From Saccoglossus kowalevskii (taxonomy: Eukaryota; Hemichordata; Enteropneusta; Harrimaniidae), in NCBI RefSeq assembly GCF_000003605.2, contig NW_003135844.1, positions 138,670 through 161,764 on the forward strand: a stretch of DNA of 23,095 bases, given 5' to 3'. Positions within the stretch are counted from its first letter, which is position 1; every line of letters starts with the position of its first letter. The position numbers and the translations under genes are program-made. Shown here piece after piece: positions 2,921 to 23,095 of the stretch. The notes under the pieces were generated by a model. That model did no database searches, was not told the origin of the DNA, and saw only the letters and a program-made list of their open reading frames with translations.

Positions 2921-3003
2921 TAGTAAATTGTTAACACTTGACATATGTACCTACCAATAAGCGATAAAAGAATTCAAACCAACACCATATACAAATTTTT
3001 ACA

Positions 3004-3009
3004 TTTATT
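3004..3009 (-). terminator. Poly(A) signal of the first GNAT gene
   Basis: TTTATT on the plus strand reads AATAAA on the minus strand, about 23 nt past the TAA stop. If used, the 3' untranslated region would be very short (about 40-50 nt). Confidence 0.5.
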
Positions 3010-3031
3010 TTTTAAAGATATTTCACCACTT

Positions 3032-3715
3032 TTATAATTGTTTTACCATTAATTGAACACATTTGGCTACTGGATGATTTGAAAACAGTTTTTTACCTTC
3101 AAACTCGAAATTATCAAACTGTATTTCATATACTGAATGAAAACCACACTTTTCGAATGCACGTTGGCTATACGGACTAGTTGCGTCAGCCATGACTATT
3201 GACAAGCCTTTCTCTTTGCAAACCTCAAGTTTACGTCTGGTTATCTCTGTTAATATCCCCATTCTGCCATAATCTACATGAGTGGTTACTTTTGCGATTT
3301 CTGCAACCAGACTTGATGGAGTTGTTGTTATTCCAGCAATAGGATCACCGTGACCATGAAGTACCCCTAATATTGCTAACATAGGCGTGTATACTTCTCT
3401 TCCCTTTAGGTCTTTGGCATAGTATATATATTCTCCTTCCTCCCCTTCAGTGCATATTACACTCGCAGCTACTCCTACCAACTTATTTGTACTTGTATCG
3501 ATAGCCACAAATGACAGCCCATCACGTATGGCTCTCTGACATAGCTGGTAGTTAGCACTATACTCTACATTGTAGCTAGTATTGTCTAACGATGAAATGA
3601 GAGGTTCTCGTTGGAGCATAGCAGAAGTCAGCAACTTAGTAGCATCGTCTAGATGTATTTCCGCCAAGGAACGGTACTCTATATCCTCGATTCGATGGGA
3701 AGTCATGTTACTCAT
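3032..3715 (-). CDS. GNAT-family N-acetyltransferase, arylalkylamine N-acetyltransferase-like (copy 1, 227 aa)
   Basis: Intact single-exon ORF. The translation has the layout of the GNAT fold as found in insect-type arylalkylamine N-acetyltransferases, which move acetyl from acetyl-CoA to amines. It shows an N-terminal strand and helix with REPLI at 36-40, strands at about 67-86 (SFVAIDTSTNKLVGVA), the acetyl-CoA strand and loop at about 138-162 (VTTHVDYGRMGI), a strand at 171-180, and the helix with SQRAFEKCGF at 183-192, a hallmark of this family. The length of about 225 aa fits the family. No signal peptide or membrane segment is visible, so it is probably cytosolic. The loop is odd: the usual Q/R-x-x-G-x-G/A reads G150-R-M-G153-I-L155. 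The paralogue at 13780-14454 is 77% identical. ATG at 3715 is the first start; a second ATG at 3706 aligns with the paralogue's residue 1, so either may be used. The substrate is unknown. Confidence 0.92.
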   Translation of the reverse strand: MSNMTSHRIEDIEYRSLAEIHLDDATKLLTSAMLQREPLISSLDNTSYNVEYSANYQLCQRAIRDGLSFVAIDTSTNKLVGVAASVICTEGEEGEYIYYAKDLKGREVYTPMLAILGVLHGHGDPIAGITTTPSSLVAEIAKVTTHVDYGRMGILTEITRRKLEVCKEKGLSIVMADATSPYSQRAFEKCGFHSVYEIQFDNFEFEGKKLFSNHPVAKCVQLMVKQL

Positions 3716-3822
3716 CGTCAGGAAGCATAGGCCTATATAAGATTAAACAATAAACAAAATATTCAACAATATATCACGTATTCCTCTTTGTAAGTTATAA
3801 AATAAAAAGCTTCCCGGATGGA
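3716..3822 (-). promoter_or_regulatory. Conserved 5' flank of GNAT copy 1 (leader, promoter or splice acceptor)
   Basis: About 105 bp upstream of the ATG align closely with the flank of copy 2 (14455-14556), then similarity stops. Shared items, read toward the gene, are TTTTATAACTTACAAAG (a TATA-like element about 80-90 nt before the ATG) and TTATATAG followed by GCCTATGCTTCCTGA just before the start. The palindrome ATAGGCCTAT is at 3727-3736. TATATAG|G could be a close TATA element or a 3' splice site of a leader intron; the sequence cannot decide. Confidence 0.4.
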
Positions 3823-5382: not shown

Positions 5383-6985
5383 CATGCATAAATCAAACAA
5401 GCCAAGTATAAACCAGTGTTGTCTCTCAATTTTTTTCTAGAATAGACATTCAGTTACCTGAGAAAGCGAAAATATTGATGTCACCATATCCATTTTTAGC
5501 TTGCTTTAATATGACTACTTCAGCAGTGTCCCGCAAAGTTTACACAACAATTAGTAAATTTGTAATTCCAAATTCAGCCAATAACAACTTGTCAGCAATG
5601 CGGAGGATTTATGGCAGTGTTTGTGTGGACAGGCAACGTCTGAATGAAAAAAAAGCCTACTCAGACAACGCCGTAGGTTATTGAAAACATATAAACACTC
5701 GTGAGTTCAGGTGAAGCGCATAGCCACTCTCTATAGACGTACACTTATAAATAACAGACAAAACTGTTGAACTCACAACAACATAAAAGCGTTACGCCAC
5801 TGTAGGCAACTCACTAAGAACAGCTCCAAAATGGCGTGCAATTATTGCCGACTTGCCATGACTAAGTGCTCAAAAGTACACCAAACCTACAAATTGTTTC
5901 GAATCAATCTTCACAAGAATAAATTATGTATATAATAGGGCTGTACCTTAGAGTGAGCAGGCCTTGATTCGCATCCAATGCCTGAATAAATTTAAAGGGT
6001 TCATTGTGTGATATGTTATCACCCCATATCATCTGACCAAGGTTCATTTATTCAACCATTGCCTCTTTTAACTTTACCATATCGTTCTTGTTTATCATTC
6101 CAGATATTAGAACTGAATTCATGTTTAAAGAAATCTCTTTTTCTTACAGATCATAACATGTATTGCGATTAACTTACTGGGTTTCCAATGATTTGATTAC
6201 GAAGTGCTCCTCTTGCAATGCGTTCATATGCCAAGTAGAGTGATCAGCACAAAATTAAGACAGTGCGTACGTGCCAGCTTTATATAACATCTTATATAAT
6301 GTAACTTAGGGGGCCTGAATGAGTGGTGAATTAACACGTTTTCGAAACGTCACAATCGGCGGTTATTACTTGGAGGAGATTTTAAATTCAGTGTAGACAG
6401 GTCCCAGGTTTGTGTATATATATTCACTTCAGGTAAATGTCAACCTTCGAATATAGAATTCAATATTTACACCGCTACACATCAATTCAAAACCTGAGAC
6501 ATCCACAACATATCTGAAGCGTGCAACTAAAAGGAGCTTCATGTCAGACGGCAAGTGGTAGCTTAAATTTGTCGAATGAACGGCTCCCTCTATTGACAAC
6601 TAGAACTCCGCTGCACATTTAATCATTCATAAAAGTGTGCGACCCACAGTTAGGATATGTAAAAACTAAACATGCAACCGAACAGCTAGCACATGTGACT
6701 GATTAGTTAAAGTTGTTTTGACAATGTGCACACACTGTATCAATAATGCAATATATTCATTTCCGAAGCTGTTAATAAACCTATTATTATTATTATAGTA
6801 CATTACGCGGTCGGAATACAACCCAAAATAGCTTTAAACAACACTTCCAACATTGAAACAAATTGCCTACTCGTCGAATGTTCAAGTAAATTTCTTTTGT
6901 TTCTTATCTGTAAAAATAATAAAATATAGCATGCCGTTCAGAGCAATATTTGATTTTAACTTTTGGTTTATAAAAATGTTCTCTA
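5383..6985 (+). repeat. Dispersed repeat, copy A
   Basis: The first kilobase (5383-6395) aligns with copy C (20649-21826). Shared landmarks include CATGCATAAATCAAA at the start, the CTACTTCAG-GTGT-CCG-AAAGTTACACAA segment, AAAAGTACACCAAACCTA, and CTTAGGGGGCCTGAATG. The last part (about 6040-6985) aligns with copy B (10515-11480): AACGTCACAATCGGCGGTTATTA, GTGTATATATATTCACTTCAGG, TTTACACCGCTACACATCAA, AAATATAGCATGCCGTTCAG. No protein is encoded; the 62- and 69-codon ORFs inside are not kept open among copies. The element class is undetermined: I see no clear terminal repeats or target-site duplication. Confidence 0.75.
6783..6799. repeat. (TTA)n microsatellite in copy A
   Basis: About five ATT/TTA triplets in a row. 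Copy B has a shorter version at the corresponding place (about 11198-11208). Confidence 0.6.
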
Positions 6986-10425: not shown

Positions 10426-11480
10426 CTCTGACAACGCCGTGGATACAGGGGTCATTGCAAATATGAACACACTTATTTACTGTCACCGTAAAGCATTAAA
10501 TAACACCTCGCATTATTCAACCCCACTTCGTATGCATGGTCAATTATTTCAATCATTGTCTCGTTCAACTTTACCTTATTTTTCTTGTTTTGTTGTTCAA
10601 GGTTTTAGGACTGAATTCATGTTTTCTCTCCTCCTTCAAGATTGTAAAATGTATCAACTGAATTTTCAATATTTTCATTAAAGAATGTTCCTATTTTAAT
10701 GCGTTTATATGACAAGTACATTTATCAGTGGAGAAATTGGATAGCGCATACGTGCCAGCTTTTTTAAATACTTTTTCAAAACGTCACAACCGGCGGTTAT
10801 TACTTCGAAGAGATTTTAACTCCAGCCAAGACAGGTTTGTGTATATATATTCACTTCAGGTAAAAGTAAACCTTTATATATGAAATATTTACACCGCTAC
10901 ACATCAATGCAAAACCTGAGACATTCACAGAATATTTGAAGCGTGTAGCTAGAAAGAGCTCCTTGTCAGTAAGGCAAGTGGTAGATTAACTTTGTTGAAT
11001 GAATGGCGCCCTCTATTGTACATTTAACCGTTTACAAAACCAAAGAGGTGGCGTGAGACCCGCAGTGGGGGTATACAAGAACTGCATATACATCCAAACA
11101 ACTGACACATGTGACTAATTAGTAACAGTTGTTTTGACAATGTGTACTCATTGTATCAATGATGCAGTGTATACATTTCTGCAAGTGTTCAAGAAATTAT
11201 TATTGTATTACACCAGCGAAGTTTGCCTTACACACTCATTATATATCAAAAGAAAGTTCAGTATTTTACCTTTCGGAATTTGTATGATGTGGAAACGTAA
11301 AATGGTCTGAATATTCCCAAAAATACCTTTAAATAACACTTCCCTCTTTGAGACAAATTGCCAACTCGTCGAATGTTGAAGTATTTTTTTTTAGTTTCTT
11401 ATCTTTAATAAAATATAGCATGCCGTTCAGATAAATGGAGTAATATTTGATTTTTAACTTTTAGTTTATTATAGAATGCT
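10426..11480 (+). repeat. Dispersed repeat, copy B
   Basis: Good alignment with copy A starts at about 10515 (TTCAACC-ATTG-CTC-TTTAACTTTACC) and runs to about 11480. A short earlier match (CTCTGACAACGCCGTGG at 10426, against 5660 in copy A) suggests the copy may begin there with a diverged middle. The best-kept block is 10775-10930. Compared with copies A and C, it lacks the CTTAGGGGGCCTGAATG segment, apparently by deletion. Confidence 0.7.
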
Positions 11481-13779: not shown

Positions 13780-14454
13780 TTATAAATTTTTTACCATTAA
13801 TTTAACACATCTGCCTATTGGGTGATTTGAAAACTGATTTTTGCCTTCAAACTCGAACTTATCAAACTGTATTTCATATACCGAATGAAAACCACACTTT
13901 TCGAATGCACGCTGGCTATACGGACTACTTGCGTCAGTTATGACTATTGACAAGCATTTCTCTTTGCAAACATCTAGTTTATGTCGGGTTATCTCTGTTA
14001 ATATCCCCATTCTGCCATAATCTACATGAGTGGCTACTTTTGCGATTACCGCAACCAGACTTGAGGGAATTGCTGTTACTCCAGCAAGGGGGTCACCATG
14101 ATCATGTAGTTCCCGTAATATATTTATCATAGGCTTGTATAAGTATCTTCCCTCTAAGTCTTTGGGATGGTAAATACACTCTTCATCTTCCCCTTCAGCG
14201 CATATTACACTTGTGGCAACTCCTACCAGCCCATTCGTACTTGTATCAATAGCCACAAATGACAGTCCATCACGTATGGCTCTCTGACATAGCTGGTAGT
14301 TGGCACTGTACTCAACCTCATAGCTAGTATTCTTCATTGTTGAAATGAAAGGTTCCCTCTGAACCATCGCAGAAGTCAGTAACTTAGCAGCATCATTCAG
14401 ATACATTTCAGCTAAGAAACGGTACTCTATGTGCTCCATTCGATGGAAGGACAT
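13780..14454 (-). CDS. GNAT-family N-acetyltransferase, arylalkylamine N-acetyltransferase-like (copy 2, 224 aa)
   Basis: Intact, intronless paralogue of the gene at 3032-3715. Identical blocks cover 49-74 (SANYQLCQRAIRDGLSFVAI region), the acetyl-CoA loop (YGRMGILTEITR, about 146-157) and the C-terminal helix with SQRAFEKCGF (180-189). Differences cluster at the N terminus, around 85-120 and in the last 20 residues, where substrate-side surfaces could change. The loop again has G in place of the expected Q/R and L in place of the final G/A. Relative to copy 1 it lacks three N-terminal residues. That both frames stay open despite many base changes suggests both were kept by selection. The same conserved 100-bp flank precedes the ATG, and a heat-shock-type promoter module lies about 620 bp upstream in the same orientation. 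Substrate unknown; an aralkylamine or polyamine is a guess from family. Confidence 0.92.
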   Translation of the reverse strand: MSFHRMEHIEYRFLAEMYLNDAAKLLTSAMVQREPFISTMKNTSYEVEYSANYQLCQRAIRDGLSFVAIDTSTNGLVGVATSVICAEGEDEECIYHPKDLEGRYLYKPMINILRELHDHGDPLAGVTAIPSSLVAVIAKVATHVDYGRMGILTEITRHKLDVCKEKCLSIVITDASSPYSQRAFEKCGFHSVYEIQFDKFEFEGKNQFSNHPIGRCVKLMVKNL

Positions 14455-14556
14455 CCTCAGGAAGCATAGGCCTATATAATGTTAACCAATAAACAAATAT
14501 TAACATATCACATATCCCACTTTGTAAGTTATAAAATCAAAAGCCTATCCCATGTG
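14455..14556 (-). promoter_or_regulatory. Conserved 5' flank of GNAT copy 2 (leader, promoter or splice acceptor)
   Basis: Aligns with 3716-3822 ahead of copy 1, including the ATAGGCCTAT palindrome (14466-14475) and minus-strand TTATATAG. Here the flank also carries AACCAAT (minus-strand ATTGGTT). If TATATAG|G is a 3' splice site, the upstream donor candidate CTGA|GTAAGA on the minus strand (14645-14636) would give a leader intron of about 170 nt. Alternatively the block is a TATA-type core promoter. Confidence 0.4.
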
Positions 14557-15100
14557 ATTCACCCGAAACTCAAAACACAAAAGTGAAAAAATATTTGGAT
14601 CCATGGTGTTTGTTTATACACCGATTATACCACCTTCTTACTCAGTCATGATGCCATGCATAAAATGTTACTTCTTTTTTTTATATGAAATAAAAATTCA
14701 ATTTTGCCTTAGTCTTATCGGGAGCGATTATGTGGGATCACTCGATCGCTTCGGTAAAAACGCATACCCGCCATGATGTTTGTGATGCATTAGTTGACCG
14801 ACATGTGTCCTTTGACCCGATGGGTCAATGTCACACGCAACGTAATATTACCGTAATTGGTATAGTACAGGTGTGATGGTTCAAATACCAAAATGGCAAC
14901 AGTAATAAAAAGACTTCCCTGGCGGCGATGATAAAATACCAACACGGAGCCAACAGATGAGGTTTCAACTGGTACTGGCATTATTATACTCTGCAAACAT
15001 CAAGTACAATAATGCGGTAAAACTCCACTACTCCAATAACTAGAAACTCCAATACAATTCAACGAGATCTCCGATCTGATCTCAGTGCTGAACAACTCCC
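14557..15100 (-). other. Candidate leader region between the heat-shock-type module and GNAT copy 2
   Basis: No homology elsewhere in the window. A transcript started by the module would cross it. It contains upstream ATGs: one opens an 11-codon ORF at about 15000, another a 63-codon minus-strand ORF (14981-14790) that begins MPVPVETSSVGS and that I cannot assign. Unspliced, these would hinder translation of GNAT copy 2, which favours splicing of the leader if the module does drive that gene. Confidence 0.25.
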
Positions 15101-15311
15101 CTATATATATACCCACACTGTCTATAAATAGACCATTACATCAGCATACATAATGAGTCTGGAACTTACTACAAATTTCTAGAATTTTCCATTACCTATT
15201 CAACCAGTTTCTAAAAATTCCACTCAGACACAGTACGGTTCTAGAACATTCTCAGTCACACGGACGTGGTAAACAAGTCGTATGCGACAGTCAAGAATGC
15301 CATTAACCAAT
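15101..15311 (-). promoter_or_regulatory. Heat-shock-type promoter module (HSEs, TATA, CCAAT)
   Basis: Two perfect three-unit heat-shock elements of the form TTCnnGAAnnTTC occur at 15177-15189 (TTCTAGAATTTTC) and 15239-15251 (TTCTAGAACATTC). A degenerate one (TTCTAAAAATTCC) begins at 15209, so the three starts are spaced 32 and 30 bp. Read on the minus strand, a CCAAT box (AACCAATCAGA, core 15307-15311) is distal, the HSEs are in the middle, and TATATATATAG (15111-15101) is proximal, with a second TATA-like CTATTTATAG at 15131-15122. This order matches known heat-shock gene promoters bound by HSF and NF-Y. Transcription would start near 15075 and run left toward GNAT copy 2. No heat-shock protein gene is present. 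Confidence 0.6.
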
Positions 15312-16372: not shown

Positions 16373-16420
16373 AATAAAACAATTCAAACCAACACTATTT
16401 TTACCTTTATTTTTAAAAGA
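16373..16420 (-). repeat. GNAT 3' flank attached to the pseudogene
   Basis: AATTCAAACCAACAC and the following T-rich bases match the 3' flank of GNAT copy 1 at 2971-3018, in the same orientation. This shows that the pseudogene arose from a DNA-level duplication including flanking sequence. Confidence 0.65.
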
Positions 16421-16666
16421 TGTGAATATCTCCATTTTGCTATTATTTACATGAGTGGCTACTTTTGGGATTTTCGCAACCTGACTTGATGGAGTTGTTG
16501 TTATTCCTGCAATTGGATCACTATTATCATTATTGTTAGCATAGGCCCGTATACTTCCCTTCCCTTTAGGTCATTGGCATAGTAAATACATTCTCTTTCC
16601 TCCCCTTTAGCGCATATTACACCGGCAGCGTGTACGTTATCGACAGCCACAAATAACAGCCCATCA
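16421..16666 (-). pseudogene. GNAT acetyltransferase pseudogene (third copy, internal fragment)
   Basis: Nucleotides match the coding region of GNAT copy 1 from about residue 64 to 156, in the same orientation. Missing are the first 63 residues and the last 70 or so, including most of the acetyl-CoA loop and the SQRAFEKCGF helix. Two further internal losses lie near 16525 and 16635, where the gene copies carry 10-20 more bases. The 3' coding loss joins residue ~156 directly to sequence matching the 3' flank of copy 1, an internal deletion of roughly 230 bp. Some bases agree with copy 1 and others with copy 2, so it split off near the time of their own duplication. It cannot encode a working enzyme. 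Confidence 0.85.
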
Positions 16667-17320
16667 TGAATATTTTAATAAACATTCTACTTCAGAAGTG
16701 TCCCGCAAAGTTACCAAATGGTTAGTATATTTGTAATTACAAGTTAACCTAATAATAATAGCAAATCAACAGTGACAGACTAGTTTTATAAGCGCCAATA
16801 TCCTACATTTGAATATGGTCGGTGCATGACAGATAAGCAACACGAGGAAATGCCTTGTATGGCATGGCTATCTAGGTAGCAACACAGAGGTCACTAATCA
16901 TTAAGATTATCCATATTGAGTTGAATATTGACGCAATTCGCAGAAACCTACAAATGACAGTCATCACGTACGGCACCGTACGTCTTATGTTTTGACAAAT
17001 TAGTTTATTTTCAATTTTGAGATTTAAGATTGAAGTTTAAAATATCCCATGAAATGAAAGCAATTTCGTAATATATACGTGTGTTGTAGGTGTACGGACT
17101 AAATTTTATTAAAAACCCATATCTAAACAAGGTCCGGTGCATGACAGATAAGCCACACGAGGAAATGCGTTGTATGGCATGGCTATCCAGGTAGCAACAC
17201 CGACCCCACTAATCATTATAATTATATTGTGTTGAATATTGACGCAATTCGCTTAAATTATCGTTTACGGAACCCACAAATGACAGTCATCACACACGGC
17301 ACGTACGTCTTATGTTTACA
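16667..17320 (+). repeat. Mosaic tandem repeat module next to the GNAT pseudogene
   Basis: It starts exactly where pseudogene homology ends. 16667-16800 matches copy C at 20730-20880 (ATATTTTAATAAACATT, CTTCAG-AGTGT-CCG-AAAGTTAC). Then GGTCGGTGCATGACAGATAAG to ATTGACGCAATTCGC (about 16816-16945) and GACAAATTAGTTTATTTT to ACGGACTAAATTTTATT (about 16993-17111) follow. The first of these recurs at 17131-17315 (GGTCCGGTGCATGACAGATAAGCC and on), making a tandem array with a period near 312 bp. Related pieces are at 20470-20600 and 20890-21005. Confidence 0.75.
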
Positions 17321-19968: not shown

Positions 19969-20387
19969 AGCAACTGGCCAAATTACAATCGAGTGGTGGG
20001 TGGGTCACAGTCAAGTACAAATAAGCCATTCACTGCCAAAGAACAAATATGCTAGTACTCACTTTAACCTCCCCCTTGATTCAAATGACATAACCAAAAG
20101 ACTTAAGACATCACCTACTTCCTATAACACACAACATAATAATCACATAATTGTTCTTACATGTATACATTGTCACAGCAAAATCAATTCCATAAATTTA
20201 CCAATGGATCAAGCAAATCATTTGCCCATATTAACTATAGCCTATTTTGTAATCCATCTAATATATTTGTTTTGTGTTTCAATTACATAACGTTAGTACA
20301 AAAATGTCAGCTTCTATTATTTGGACCCTCGGGAAAACACAATCCCAAGGTCACGTTTATATGGTGCTGGTCCCGCTAACTCTGGGT
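19969..20387 (+). repeat. Inverted repeat arm, left (about 420 bp)
   Basis: From AGCAACTGGCCAAATTACAATC to GGTCCCGCTAACTCTGGGT this arm is the near-perfect reverse complement of 22669-23095, with scattered substitutions and a few short indels. A 72-codon ORF in this arm has a 70-codon counterpart in the other. Their likeness follows from the DNA similarity, and no protein family is recognisable. The outer end is unknown because the partner arm runs off the window. It could be the terminal inverted repeat of a DNA transposon, a foldback element, or two opposite insertions of a short element. Confidence 0.85.
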
Positions 20388-20648: not shown

Positions 20649-21826
20649 CATGCATACATCAAATGAGACATGCGGGAACCAGTGTGTCTTTAAACTTGTT
20701 CTAAAATAGACCTGTGCAAATGAAAATATTAATAAACATTGCATGTCACCGTACCGATTTTTTGCTTGCCTTAATATGCCTACTTCAGGAGTGTTCCGTA
20801 AAGTTACACAATGATAAGTATATTTGTAATTACAAGTTATCTCAATAGTAAATTGTCAGCAAATCAACAGTTTTATAAAAAGACAACAGCACTAAAATCC
20901 CATATCTAACCAAGGTCCGGTGCATGACAGATAAGCCACACGAGGAAATGCGTTGTATGGCATGGCTATCCAGACAGCAACACCGACCCCACTAATTATT
21001 ACGATTCTGTATATACTTAAATTGTCGTTAGTTATTGATGGTATACGCACAGGAATTCCACGTATTCTTTCAATGGCGGTGTTTGAATGGACAGCCAAAG
21101 ATTCCGGTCACTGTCACCACACCCGACCTTACCCATACTCACCTCGTCTTGCCTTGCCTTCAACAGGCTATAATTGACAGGCATCTCCCAAACATATAAA
21201 CACGCAATATGGTAGTTGTAGTTGGACTCACAACAACAACAACAACAACAACAAAGCGTCACGCCACTGTAGACAATATGGCGATTTTCTACAACACAGC
21301 AGCCATCCACAAAAACACAGAGCTCCAAATAACGTATAATGAATGACCAGGTTTTCAAAAGTACACCAAACCTAAAAACTGCATCGAATGCGTCTACAGA
21401 AGAATAATGTATGCTTATAATGAGGCCATGCCTTAGAAAGAAAACAGTGTTTGATTCGCCACCATGGGCAGCATTATGCGTGTGCATTAATTTGAATCTA
21501 ATGTCTAAATACATTTACTACAGTAAACTCAATAGGTATGAAATATTGATTTTTTCTACAAATTATAATAAATATTTCGATCAACTTACAGAATTTTCAA
21601 TGTTTTGATTACGGAATGCTCCTCTTGTAATGCGTTTATATGCCAAGTAGTATGATCAGTAGAGAAATTTGACAGTACGTAGTATCAGCTTTATTGACTG
21701 CCTATCACGTAACAATGATATAATATCATGTAACTTAGGGGGCCTGAATGCGTGGTGAATCAACACTTATTCAAAACGTCACAATCGGTTATTATTACAT
21801 GTGGGTGATTTTAACTTCAGCATAGT
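20649..21826 (+). repeat. Dispersed repeat, copy C
   Basis: Aligns with copy A (5383-6395) from CATGCATACATCAAA to GATTTTAACTTCAGCATAG. Relative to copy A it carries an extra block at about 20885-21010 (CCCATATCTAACCAAGGTCCGGTGCATGACAG...), which is the unit found in tandem at 16816-17315. Several ORFs of 65-160 codons cross it on both strands. The longest (160 codons, minus strand, 21032-21514) runs through the (CAA)n tract, read as a cysteine string, and is not conserved in copy A. Confidence 0.75.
21231..21254. repeat. (CAA)8 microsatellite in copy C
   Basis: Eight CAA triplets without interruption. Copy A has only CAACAACAT at the equivalent place (about 5777-5786), so the tract expanded in this copy. 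Confidence 0.85.
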
Positions 21827-21855
21827 TTTAATGTCACAATAATAACGTTTTCTAA

Positions 21856-22668: not shown

Positions 22669-23095
22669 ACCCAGAGTTAGCGGGACCAGCGCAATACAAA
22701 CGTGACCTTGATAATAGGATTGTGTTCAAATAATAGAAGCTGACATTTTTGGACTAACATTATGTAATTGAAACACAAAATATAAGTATTAGAGGGATTA
22801 CAAAATAGGCTATAGTTAATATGGGCCGATAATTTGCTGGAGCTGTTGTTAAATTTATGTAATTGATTTTGCTGTGACAATGTATACATGTATGAACAAT
22901 TATGTGAATATGGTGTTGTGTGTTATAGGAAGTAGGTAATGTCTTAAGTCTTTTGGTTATGTCATTTGAATCAAGAGGGGGAGGTTAAAGTACTTGATCG
23001 GAAAGAATGATTATATTTGTTCTTTGGCAGTGAATGGCTTATTTGTACTTGACTGTGACCCACCCACCACTCGATTGTAATTTGGGCCAGCTGCT
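22669..23095 (-). repeat. Inverted repeat arm, right (reaches window end)
   Basis: Reverse complement of 19969-20387, beginning ACCCAGAGTTAGCGGGACCAGC on the plus strand and ending CTCGATTGTAATTTGGGCCAGCTGCT at the window edge. Similarity is still strong at the last base, so the arm may be longer. The spacer between the arms is 2281 bp. Confidence 0.85.

What the first reader, a model, noticed from the sequence alone, without database searches (positions are those of the whole stretch)
15101..15311. Heat-shock-type promoter pointing at an acetyltransferase gene
Two perfect TTCnnGAAnnTTC elements and one degenerate element, spaced 32 and 30 bp, sit between a CCAAT box and a TATA box in the order of known heat-shock promoters, reading leftward. 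The next intact gene in that direction is GNAT copy 2, starting about 650 bp away. Copy 1 lacks the module (its upstream DNA is a retroelement relic), so the two paralogues may differ in stress response. The elements are seen directly; the link to the gene is inference.
Basis: partly seen in the sequence, partly recalled or inferred. Interest (0 to 1): 0.7.

Follow-up and report, generated by a model that had tools for sequence, protein, structure and literature searches.

The report
Solo retrotransposon LTR carrying heat-shock elements
The heat-shock-like promoter is real, but it is the control end of a jumping element that landed beside an acetyltransferase gene, one of at least 40 such copies in this apparently animal genome, and whether it affects that gene is untested.

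Summary
Both perfect heat-shock elements (15177-15189, 15239-15251) and the TATA boxes are there and beat chance. Window 14829-15289 (461 bp) is a repeat with 39 other scored copies in the window's own genome, TGTC...GACA ends and the same 5 bases, GTCAA, on both sides; 31 of 40 copies have identical 5-bp flanks. It is a solo LTR, reading leftward. Three of 40 copies show a primer-binding-type site beside the LTR; a visible gag piece of one hits the SCAN domain (5.8e-10), as in Gmr1-like Ty3/Gypsy elements. Of the 39 other copies, 31 have at least two exact HSEs and 8 have one. The CCAAT box lies outside the LTR. The insertion is young (7 of 461 positions differ from the commonest letters, small indels aside; dS between GNAT copies 1 and 2 is 0.33). 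It sits in sense 375 bp upstream of GNAT copy 2, but 14 upstream ATGs and no good early splice donor argue against a simple LTR-GNAT mRNA. HSF binding and heat induction are inferred; HSE cores are not more conserved than the rest of the LTR (p 0.49).

The parts
14829..15289 (-). Solo LTR (461 bp), element sense leftward; ends TGTCGC...GTGACA in element sense
   Evidence: 39 other scored copies at 85-96% identity, boundaries shared
14824..14828 (.). Target-site duplication, left copy (GTCAA)
   Evidence: identical to 15290-15294; 31 of 40 copies have identical 5-bp flanks
15290..15294 (.). Target-site duplication, right copy (GTCAA)
15239..15251 (-). Distal exact three-unit heat-shock element
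   Evidence: recurs in the family
15209..15221 (-). Degenerate HSE-like element, 2 mismatches of 9; not better than chance on its own
   Evidence: present in the 20 copies aligned, altered on C4660
15177..15189 (-). Proximal exact three-unit heat-shock element
   Evidence: recurs in the family
15122..15131 (-). CTATTTATAG, upstream TATA-like box (reads CTATAAATAG on the other strand)
   Evidence: same in the 20 copies aligned
15101..15111 (-). TATATATATAG, probable TATA box of the LTR; TATATATAG in 38 of 40 copies
   Evidence: 15101-15109: 1 of 349 cells non-majority, p 0.011 against the rest of the LTR, uncorrected
15073..15079 (-). TCAGATC, initiator-like; probable start near 15077 (inferred)
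   Evidence: read; no transcript data
14790..14981 (-). 63-aa ATG frame running out of the LTR; not a gene
   Evidence: no Pfam or PDB match; 1466 of 20000 shuffles have one as long; similar frame in the LTR copy of L021
15307..15313 (+). CCAATCA (NF-Y type site), in host DNA outside the LTR
   Evidence: outside the repeat boundary
13780..14481 (-). GNAT copy 2, intact acetyltransferase frame (probable start 14454)
   Evidence: Pfam PF00583 21.2 bits against cut-off 20.7; dN 0.125, dS 0.333 against copy 1
14459..14544 (-). Upstream block shared by GNAT copies 1, 2 and the copy at window-relative 47538; candidate native core promoter or 5' leader

Best explanation
Window 14829-15289 is a solo LTR left by a Ty3/Gypsy-type retrotransposon with a SCAN-type gag, inserted recently and leftward 375 bp upstream of GNAT copy 2. 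Its U3 part carries two perfect three-unit heat-shock elements and a TATA box. Most likely the family uses the host's heat-shock factor to switch on its own transcription under stress: an HSF trimer binds each HSE, and polymerase starts near 15077. The solo LTR keeps that promoter, so heat could start a leftward transcript here that runs towards GNAT copy 2, or the HSEs could raise GNAT copy 2 as an upstream enhancer. Shown: repeat, boundaries, target-site duplication, HSEs and TATA recurring in the copies, gag type of one copy. Inferred: HSF binding, heat induction, start site, and any effect on GNAT.
For: Own-genome search: 40 scored matches of 782 first-look candidates; the 39 non-window ones cover about window 14829-15289 at 85-96%. 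Identical 5-bp flanks in 31 of 40 copies; full 461-bp span in 39 of 40. Two or more exact HSEs in 31 of 39 other copies and one in the other 8; TATATATAG in 38 of 40. 23 of 27 genome matches to the paired-HSE pattern (gap 44-56, the window's own spacing) are this LTR, window included; the reversed pattern gives 8. Primer-binding-type sequence beside the LTR in 3 of 40 copies, on the side the promoter points to. Gag piece P0001: SCAN E 5.8e-10. SCAN derives from Gmr1-like Gypsy gag (PMC3424704, passages) and in frogs was found only in Gmr elements (PMC4131045, passages). One of two HSP70-family genes whose upstream 2 kb I read has an exact three-unit HSE about 325 bp upstream of its first matched exon. 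ONSEN, a plant LTR retrotransposon, is driven by heat-shock factors through such an element (PMC3907296, passages). [quoted passage not shown]
Against: HSE cores are not significantly more conserved than the rest of the LTR: 11 of 694 cells against 347 of 16798, p 0.49; a sliding mask does as well or better at 168 of 387 positions. The 20 closest copies alone gave 2 of 342 against 163 of 8417, p 0.10. 8 of 39 other copies have only one exact HSE, and 13 of the 31 with two have them at another spacing (not listed; L019 82 bp). The pattern was cut to this LTR's spacing, which favours it. The other HSP70-family gene read (L081) has no three-unit HSE in 2 kb. No expression, HSF-binding or chromatin data were available. 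The pol region of longer copies is withheld, so the clade rests on one gag piece.
Confidence: 0.6

Rival explanations
1. The solo LTR is an inert relic: its HSEs are inherited from the family but it is silenced or not bound, and GNAT copy 2 runs from its own upstream block.
For: HSE cores evolve like the rest of the LTR. GNAT copies 1, 2 and the one at 47538 share about 90 nt upstream, with a TATA-like ATTTTATAACTT in copies 1 and 2.
Against: The window copy is young and keeps both HSEs and the TATA (7 of 461 letter differences, none in an HSE core). The upstream block is not significantly more conserved than 4-fold sites (69 of 80 against 54 of 70, p 0.20) and only 41 nt of it are found at the fourth intact copy.
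Confidence: 0.3
2. The LTR has been co-opted as the main, heat-inducible promoter of GNAT copy 2.
For: Same strand and order, 375 bp between LTR end and the probable GNAT start; none of eight polyadenylation hexamers tried is in the LTR; copy 2 lacks the 1.5 kb upstream region that the copies at 47538 and 55222 share.
Against: 14 upstream ATGs between 15077 and 14454; the two best donors (14767, 14562) lie after 5 and 10 of them, and the proposed donor near 14642 scores at the 88th percentile of all minus-strand GTs. Copy 1 also lacks the 1.5 kb region, without an LTR.
Confidence: 0.1
3. The module is the promoter of a host heat-shock gene, present or lost, next to the GNAT genes.
For: HSE and TATA arrangement as in hsp promoters.
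Against: No Pfam match of any kind in the three leftward frames (E up to 10); the module is a dispersed repeat with target-site duplications.
Confidence: 0.01

Closest known systems
ONSEN / ATCOPIA78 (Arabidopsis, LTR copia)
   Same: LTR promoter with nTTCnnGAAn-type elements in its copies; heat-shock factors drive ONSEN (PMC3907296, passages read)
   Different: ONSEN is Copia and plant; here the gag is SCAN-type (Gypsy) and the genome apparently animal. Heat induction is shown for ONSEN and only inferred here. The name ATCOPIA78 is recalled
Helitron-borne HSEs in Caenorhabditis (PMC6927752; abstract, outline and one section read)
   Same: A mobile element spreads HSEs and brings nearby genes under heat control
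   Different: Helitrons are DNA transposons; an LTR would bring a whole promoter with TATA and start site
Gmr1-like Ty3/Gypsy retrotransposons
   Same: Gag with SCAN-type domain (PMC3424704 and PMC4131045 passages)
   Different: Pol gene order and phylogeny could not be read; heat-shock elements in their LTRs were not mentioned in the passages read
Animal hsp70-type promoters (Drosophila, PMC2871787; bay scallop, PMC4100766; passages read)
   Same: HSEs upstream of a TATA box. Here the proximal HSE lies about 100 bp from the inferred start, inside the range of Drosophila Hsp23 (94-137 bp)
   Different: No heat-shock protein gene attached; repeated in the genome; flanked by target-site duplications

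Membership tests
Solo LTR of an LTR retrotransposon | TG...CA ends at boundaries shared among dispersed copies | tested here: met
   TGTC...GACA; 39 of 40 copies span the full 461 bp
Solo LTR of an LTR retrotransposon | Short target-site duplication, differing between copies | tested here: met
   GTCAA/GTCAA at the window; identical 5-bp flanks in 31 of 40 copies
Solo LTR of an LTR retrotransposon | Other copies joined to an internal region with primer-binding site or polypurine tract | tested here: met
   TGG...CTCGTCCGGG beside the LTR in L009, L017, L064 (3 of 40; the tRNA-Pro assignment is recalled); purine-rich AGAGGGGAGGCA before the LTR in L016
Gmr1-like Ty3/Gypsy | SCAN-type gag | tested here: met
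   P0001, from the copy at L017/L021: PF02023 39.3 bits against cut-off 27. One copy only
Gmr1-like Ty3/Gypsy | Integrase ahead of reverse transcriptase; RT phylogeny (recalled) | not testable with these tools
   internal regions read mostly N
HSF-responsive promoter | Three or more alternating nGAAn units upstream of a TATA box | tested here: met
HSF-responsive promoter | HSF binding and heat induction | not testable with these tools
   no expression or ChIP data
HSF-responsive promoter | HSE cores under more constraint than neighbours (a supporting sign, not a defining one) | tested here: not met
   11 of 694 against 347 of 16798 cells, p 0.49
Host heat-shock gene promoter | Linked heat-shock protein frame | tested here: not met
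   0 Pfam families in the leftward frames

The most novel reading that the evidence does not exclude
An animal counterpart of ONSEN: a SCAN-gag Gypsy family that hijacks the host heat-shock factor to transcribe itself, supplies most of the genome's perfect HSE pairs at this spacing (23 of 27 matches), and scatters ready-made heat-inducible promoters, one of which now differs between paralogous acetyltransferase genes.
Probability: 0.3. Interest if true: 0.65.

Novelty: new member of a known kind. Interest (0 to 1): 0.42.

Why it matters
If heat drives this LTR family, it would be an animal case of a retrotransposon that rides the heat-shock response, as ONSEN does in plants, and would offer dozens of natural insertions for testing how such elements rewire stress responses. 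Even if it does not, the case shows that a convincing promoter in front of a gene can be a recent insertion, so a whole-genome copy search should come before assigning the promoter to its neighbour.

Tried and rejected
Host hsp gene or pseudogene leftward: no Pfam match in three frames, and none for the 63-aa frame in the PDB. The 63-aa frame as a gene: chance-sized (1466 of 20000 shuffles), and most of it is LTR sequence with a similar frame in another copy. Rfam (gathering scores) and tRNA scans of the window found nothing. GNAT relatives in viral contigs: none confirmed. Repeats inside the window alone did not show the LTR, because the other copies lie elsewhere. An early count of HSE pairs (12 of 3000) included overlapping elements, which required 10-100 bp, replaces it. 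Native-promoter argument from conservation of the upstream block: not significant (p 0.20). No paper on HSE-bearing LTR retrotransposons of animals was seen in the listings (4 of 4 listed; 10 of 66 listed; 12 of 12 listed), titles and abstract starts only, open-access library only; that is a limited search, not proof of absence. Papers opened but not used above: PMC2897805, PMC2900285, PMC11802806, passages only.

Full report
What is in the sequence. Two exact TTCnnGAAnnTTC elements lie at 15177-15189 and 15239-15251 and are the only ones in the window. Two such elements 10-100 bp apart were seen 4 times in 12,000 simulated windows (4000 each at orders 1-3), and 0 times with a TATA and a CCAATSR site in the stated order. 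The middle element has 2 mismatches of 9 and is not distinguishable from chance on its own. On the minus strand TATATATATAG (15111-15101) lies about 30 bases before an initiator-like TCAGATC (A at 15077). The TATA boxes can be read on either strand, so the leftward direction rests on the LTR anatomy below; the start itself is inferred.

What it is. The decisive result is the search of the window's own assembly (572 Mb, 4830 contigs, unnamed). Of 782 first-look candidates 40 were scored; one is the window and 39 others match about the same stretch, window 14829-15289, at 85-96% identity. Its ends are TGTC and GACA, and GTCAA flanks it on both sides. Over these 40 copies, 39 span the whole 461 bp and 31 have identical 5-bp flanks. 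These are the marks of solo LTRs with 5-bp target-site duplications. One search shows four further copies by their letters, on C844, C2738, C4350 and C4456. In three copies (L009, L017, L064) the LTR is followed, on the side the promoter points to, by a primer-binding-type sequence, TGGGGGCTCGTCCGGGA in L009 and L017 (tRNA-Pro type, recalled). L016 has a purine-rich stretch before the LTR, as a 3' LTR would. This fixes the element's sense as leftward in the window.

Which element. The internal parts of two such copies are mostly withheld (N). A visible open gag piece of one (P0001, 248 aa) matches the SCAN domain at 5.8e-10, above its cut-off, and weakly a solved chain named Zinc finger protein 24 (8.4e-4). 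SCAN derives from the gag of Gmr1-like Ty3/Gypsy elements (PMC3424704, passages), and in frogs was found only in Gmr elements (PMC4131045, passages). So this is probably a Gmr1-like family; gene order and RT could not be tested. That the source is an animal is inferred: after one designed coiled-coil chain, the next seven solved relatives of the acetyltransferase are dopamine or arylalkylamine N-acetyltransferases, and the gag is of the SCAN type.

Heat-shock elements belong to the family. At least two exact three-unit HSEs are in 31 of 39 other copies, one in the other 8; TATATATAG is in 38 of 40. Genome-wide, the paired-HSE pattern with the window's own spacing (gap 44-56) has 27 matches; by their letters 23 are this LTR (window included) and 4 are not; the reversed control pattern has 8. 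The pattern was cut to this LTR, which favours it, and 13 of the 31 copies with two exact HSEs are not listed there, so their spacing differs (L019: 82 bp). The CCAAT box at 15307 is host DNA beyond the LTR.

Does it work as a heat promoter? For: architecture; a young window copy (7 of 461 positions differ from the commonest letter, none in an HSE core, small indels aside); a TATA less variable than the rest of the LTR (1 of 349 cells, p 0.011, one of three comparisons, uncorrected). A small control: HSP70-family matches lie on five contigs; I read 2 kb upstream on the two whose match begins at profile position 1. One (L080) has an exact three-unit HSE about 325 bp upstream of its first matched exon, the other (L081) has none. 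Against: HSE cores vary like the rest of the LTR (11 of 694 against 347 of 16798 cells, p 0.49; sliding mask 168 of 387 as good or better). I put heat responsiveness of the family at somewhat better than even.

Does it drive GNAT copy 2? The LTR is in sense, 375 bp from the probable start at 14454, and has none of eight polyadenylation hexamers tried. But 14 ATGs lie between 15077 and 14454; the two best donors, 14767 and 14562, come after 5 and 10 of them, and none of the ten best donors lies before 14851. GNAT genes form a cluster: in 103 kb of the contig (26.6 kb of it N) there are four intact frames, at window-relative 3035-3742, 13783-14481, 47538-48233 and 55222-55929, and two partial ones, at 16406-16671 and 39762-40079; the LTR occurs once. 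Copies 1, 2 and the one at 47538 share about 90 nt upstream, with ATTTTATAACTTACAAAG identical in copies 1 and 2; the fourth shares only 41 nt of the block. The block's identity (69 of 80) does not significantly exceed 4-fold sites (54 of 70; p 0.20). dS between copies 1 and 2 is 0.33 and dN 0.125, so the duplication appears far older than the LTR insertion, and the absence of the module at copy 1 needs no further explanation.

Verdict. [quoted passage not shown] the spread of HSEs by mobile DNA has a precedent in Caenorhabditis Helitrons (PMC6927752, abstract, outline and one section).

Noticed in passing
contig positions equal to window-relative 39762-40079, 47538-48233 and 55222-55929 (in the stretches fetched): The GNAT genes form a larger cluster: two more intact frames and one more partial outside the window, in the opposite orientation; the two intact ones share about 1.5 kb of upstream DNA at 82.5%.
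   Followed up: partly
window 16374-16671: Truncated third GNAT copy (pseudogene) that also shares 3' flanking DNA with copy 1 (2964-3019), which points to DNA-based duplication.
   Followed up: partly
window 19978-20387 and 22669-23085: Inverted repeats (arms of 73, 256 and 42 nt, 91-100% complementary) bounding about 3.1 kb, like a foldback or long-TIR DNA transposon.
   Followed up: no
window 6138-6916, 10657-11411, 21550-21831: Related dispersed-repeat copies, blocks at 73-87% identity.
   Followed up: no
   Followed up: partly
L080 358-370: Exact three-unit HSE about 325 bp upstream of the first matched exon of an HSP70-family gene whose matches are split over several exons.
   Followed up: partly
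G000:C3326:199423-199569, C291:227793-227868, C3966:7308-7382: The four paired-HSE matches outside the LTR family look like short tandem repeats.
   Followed up: no
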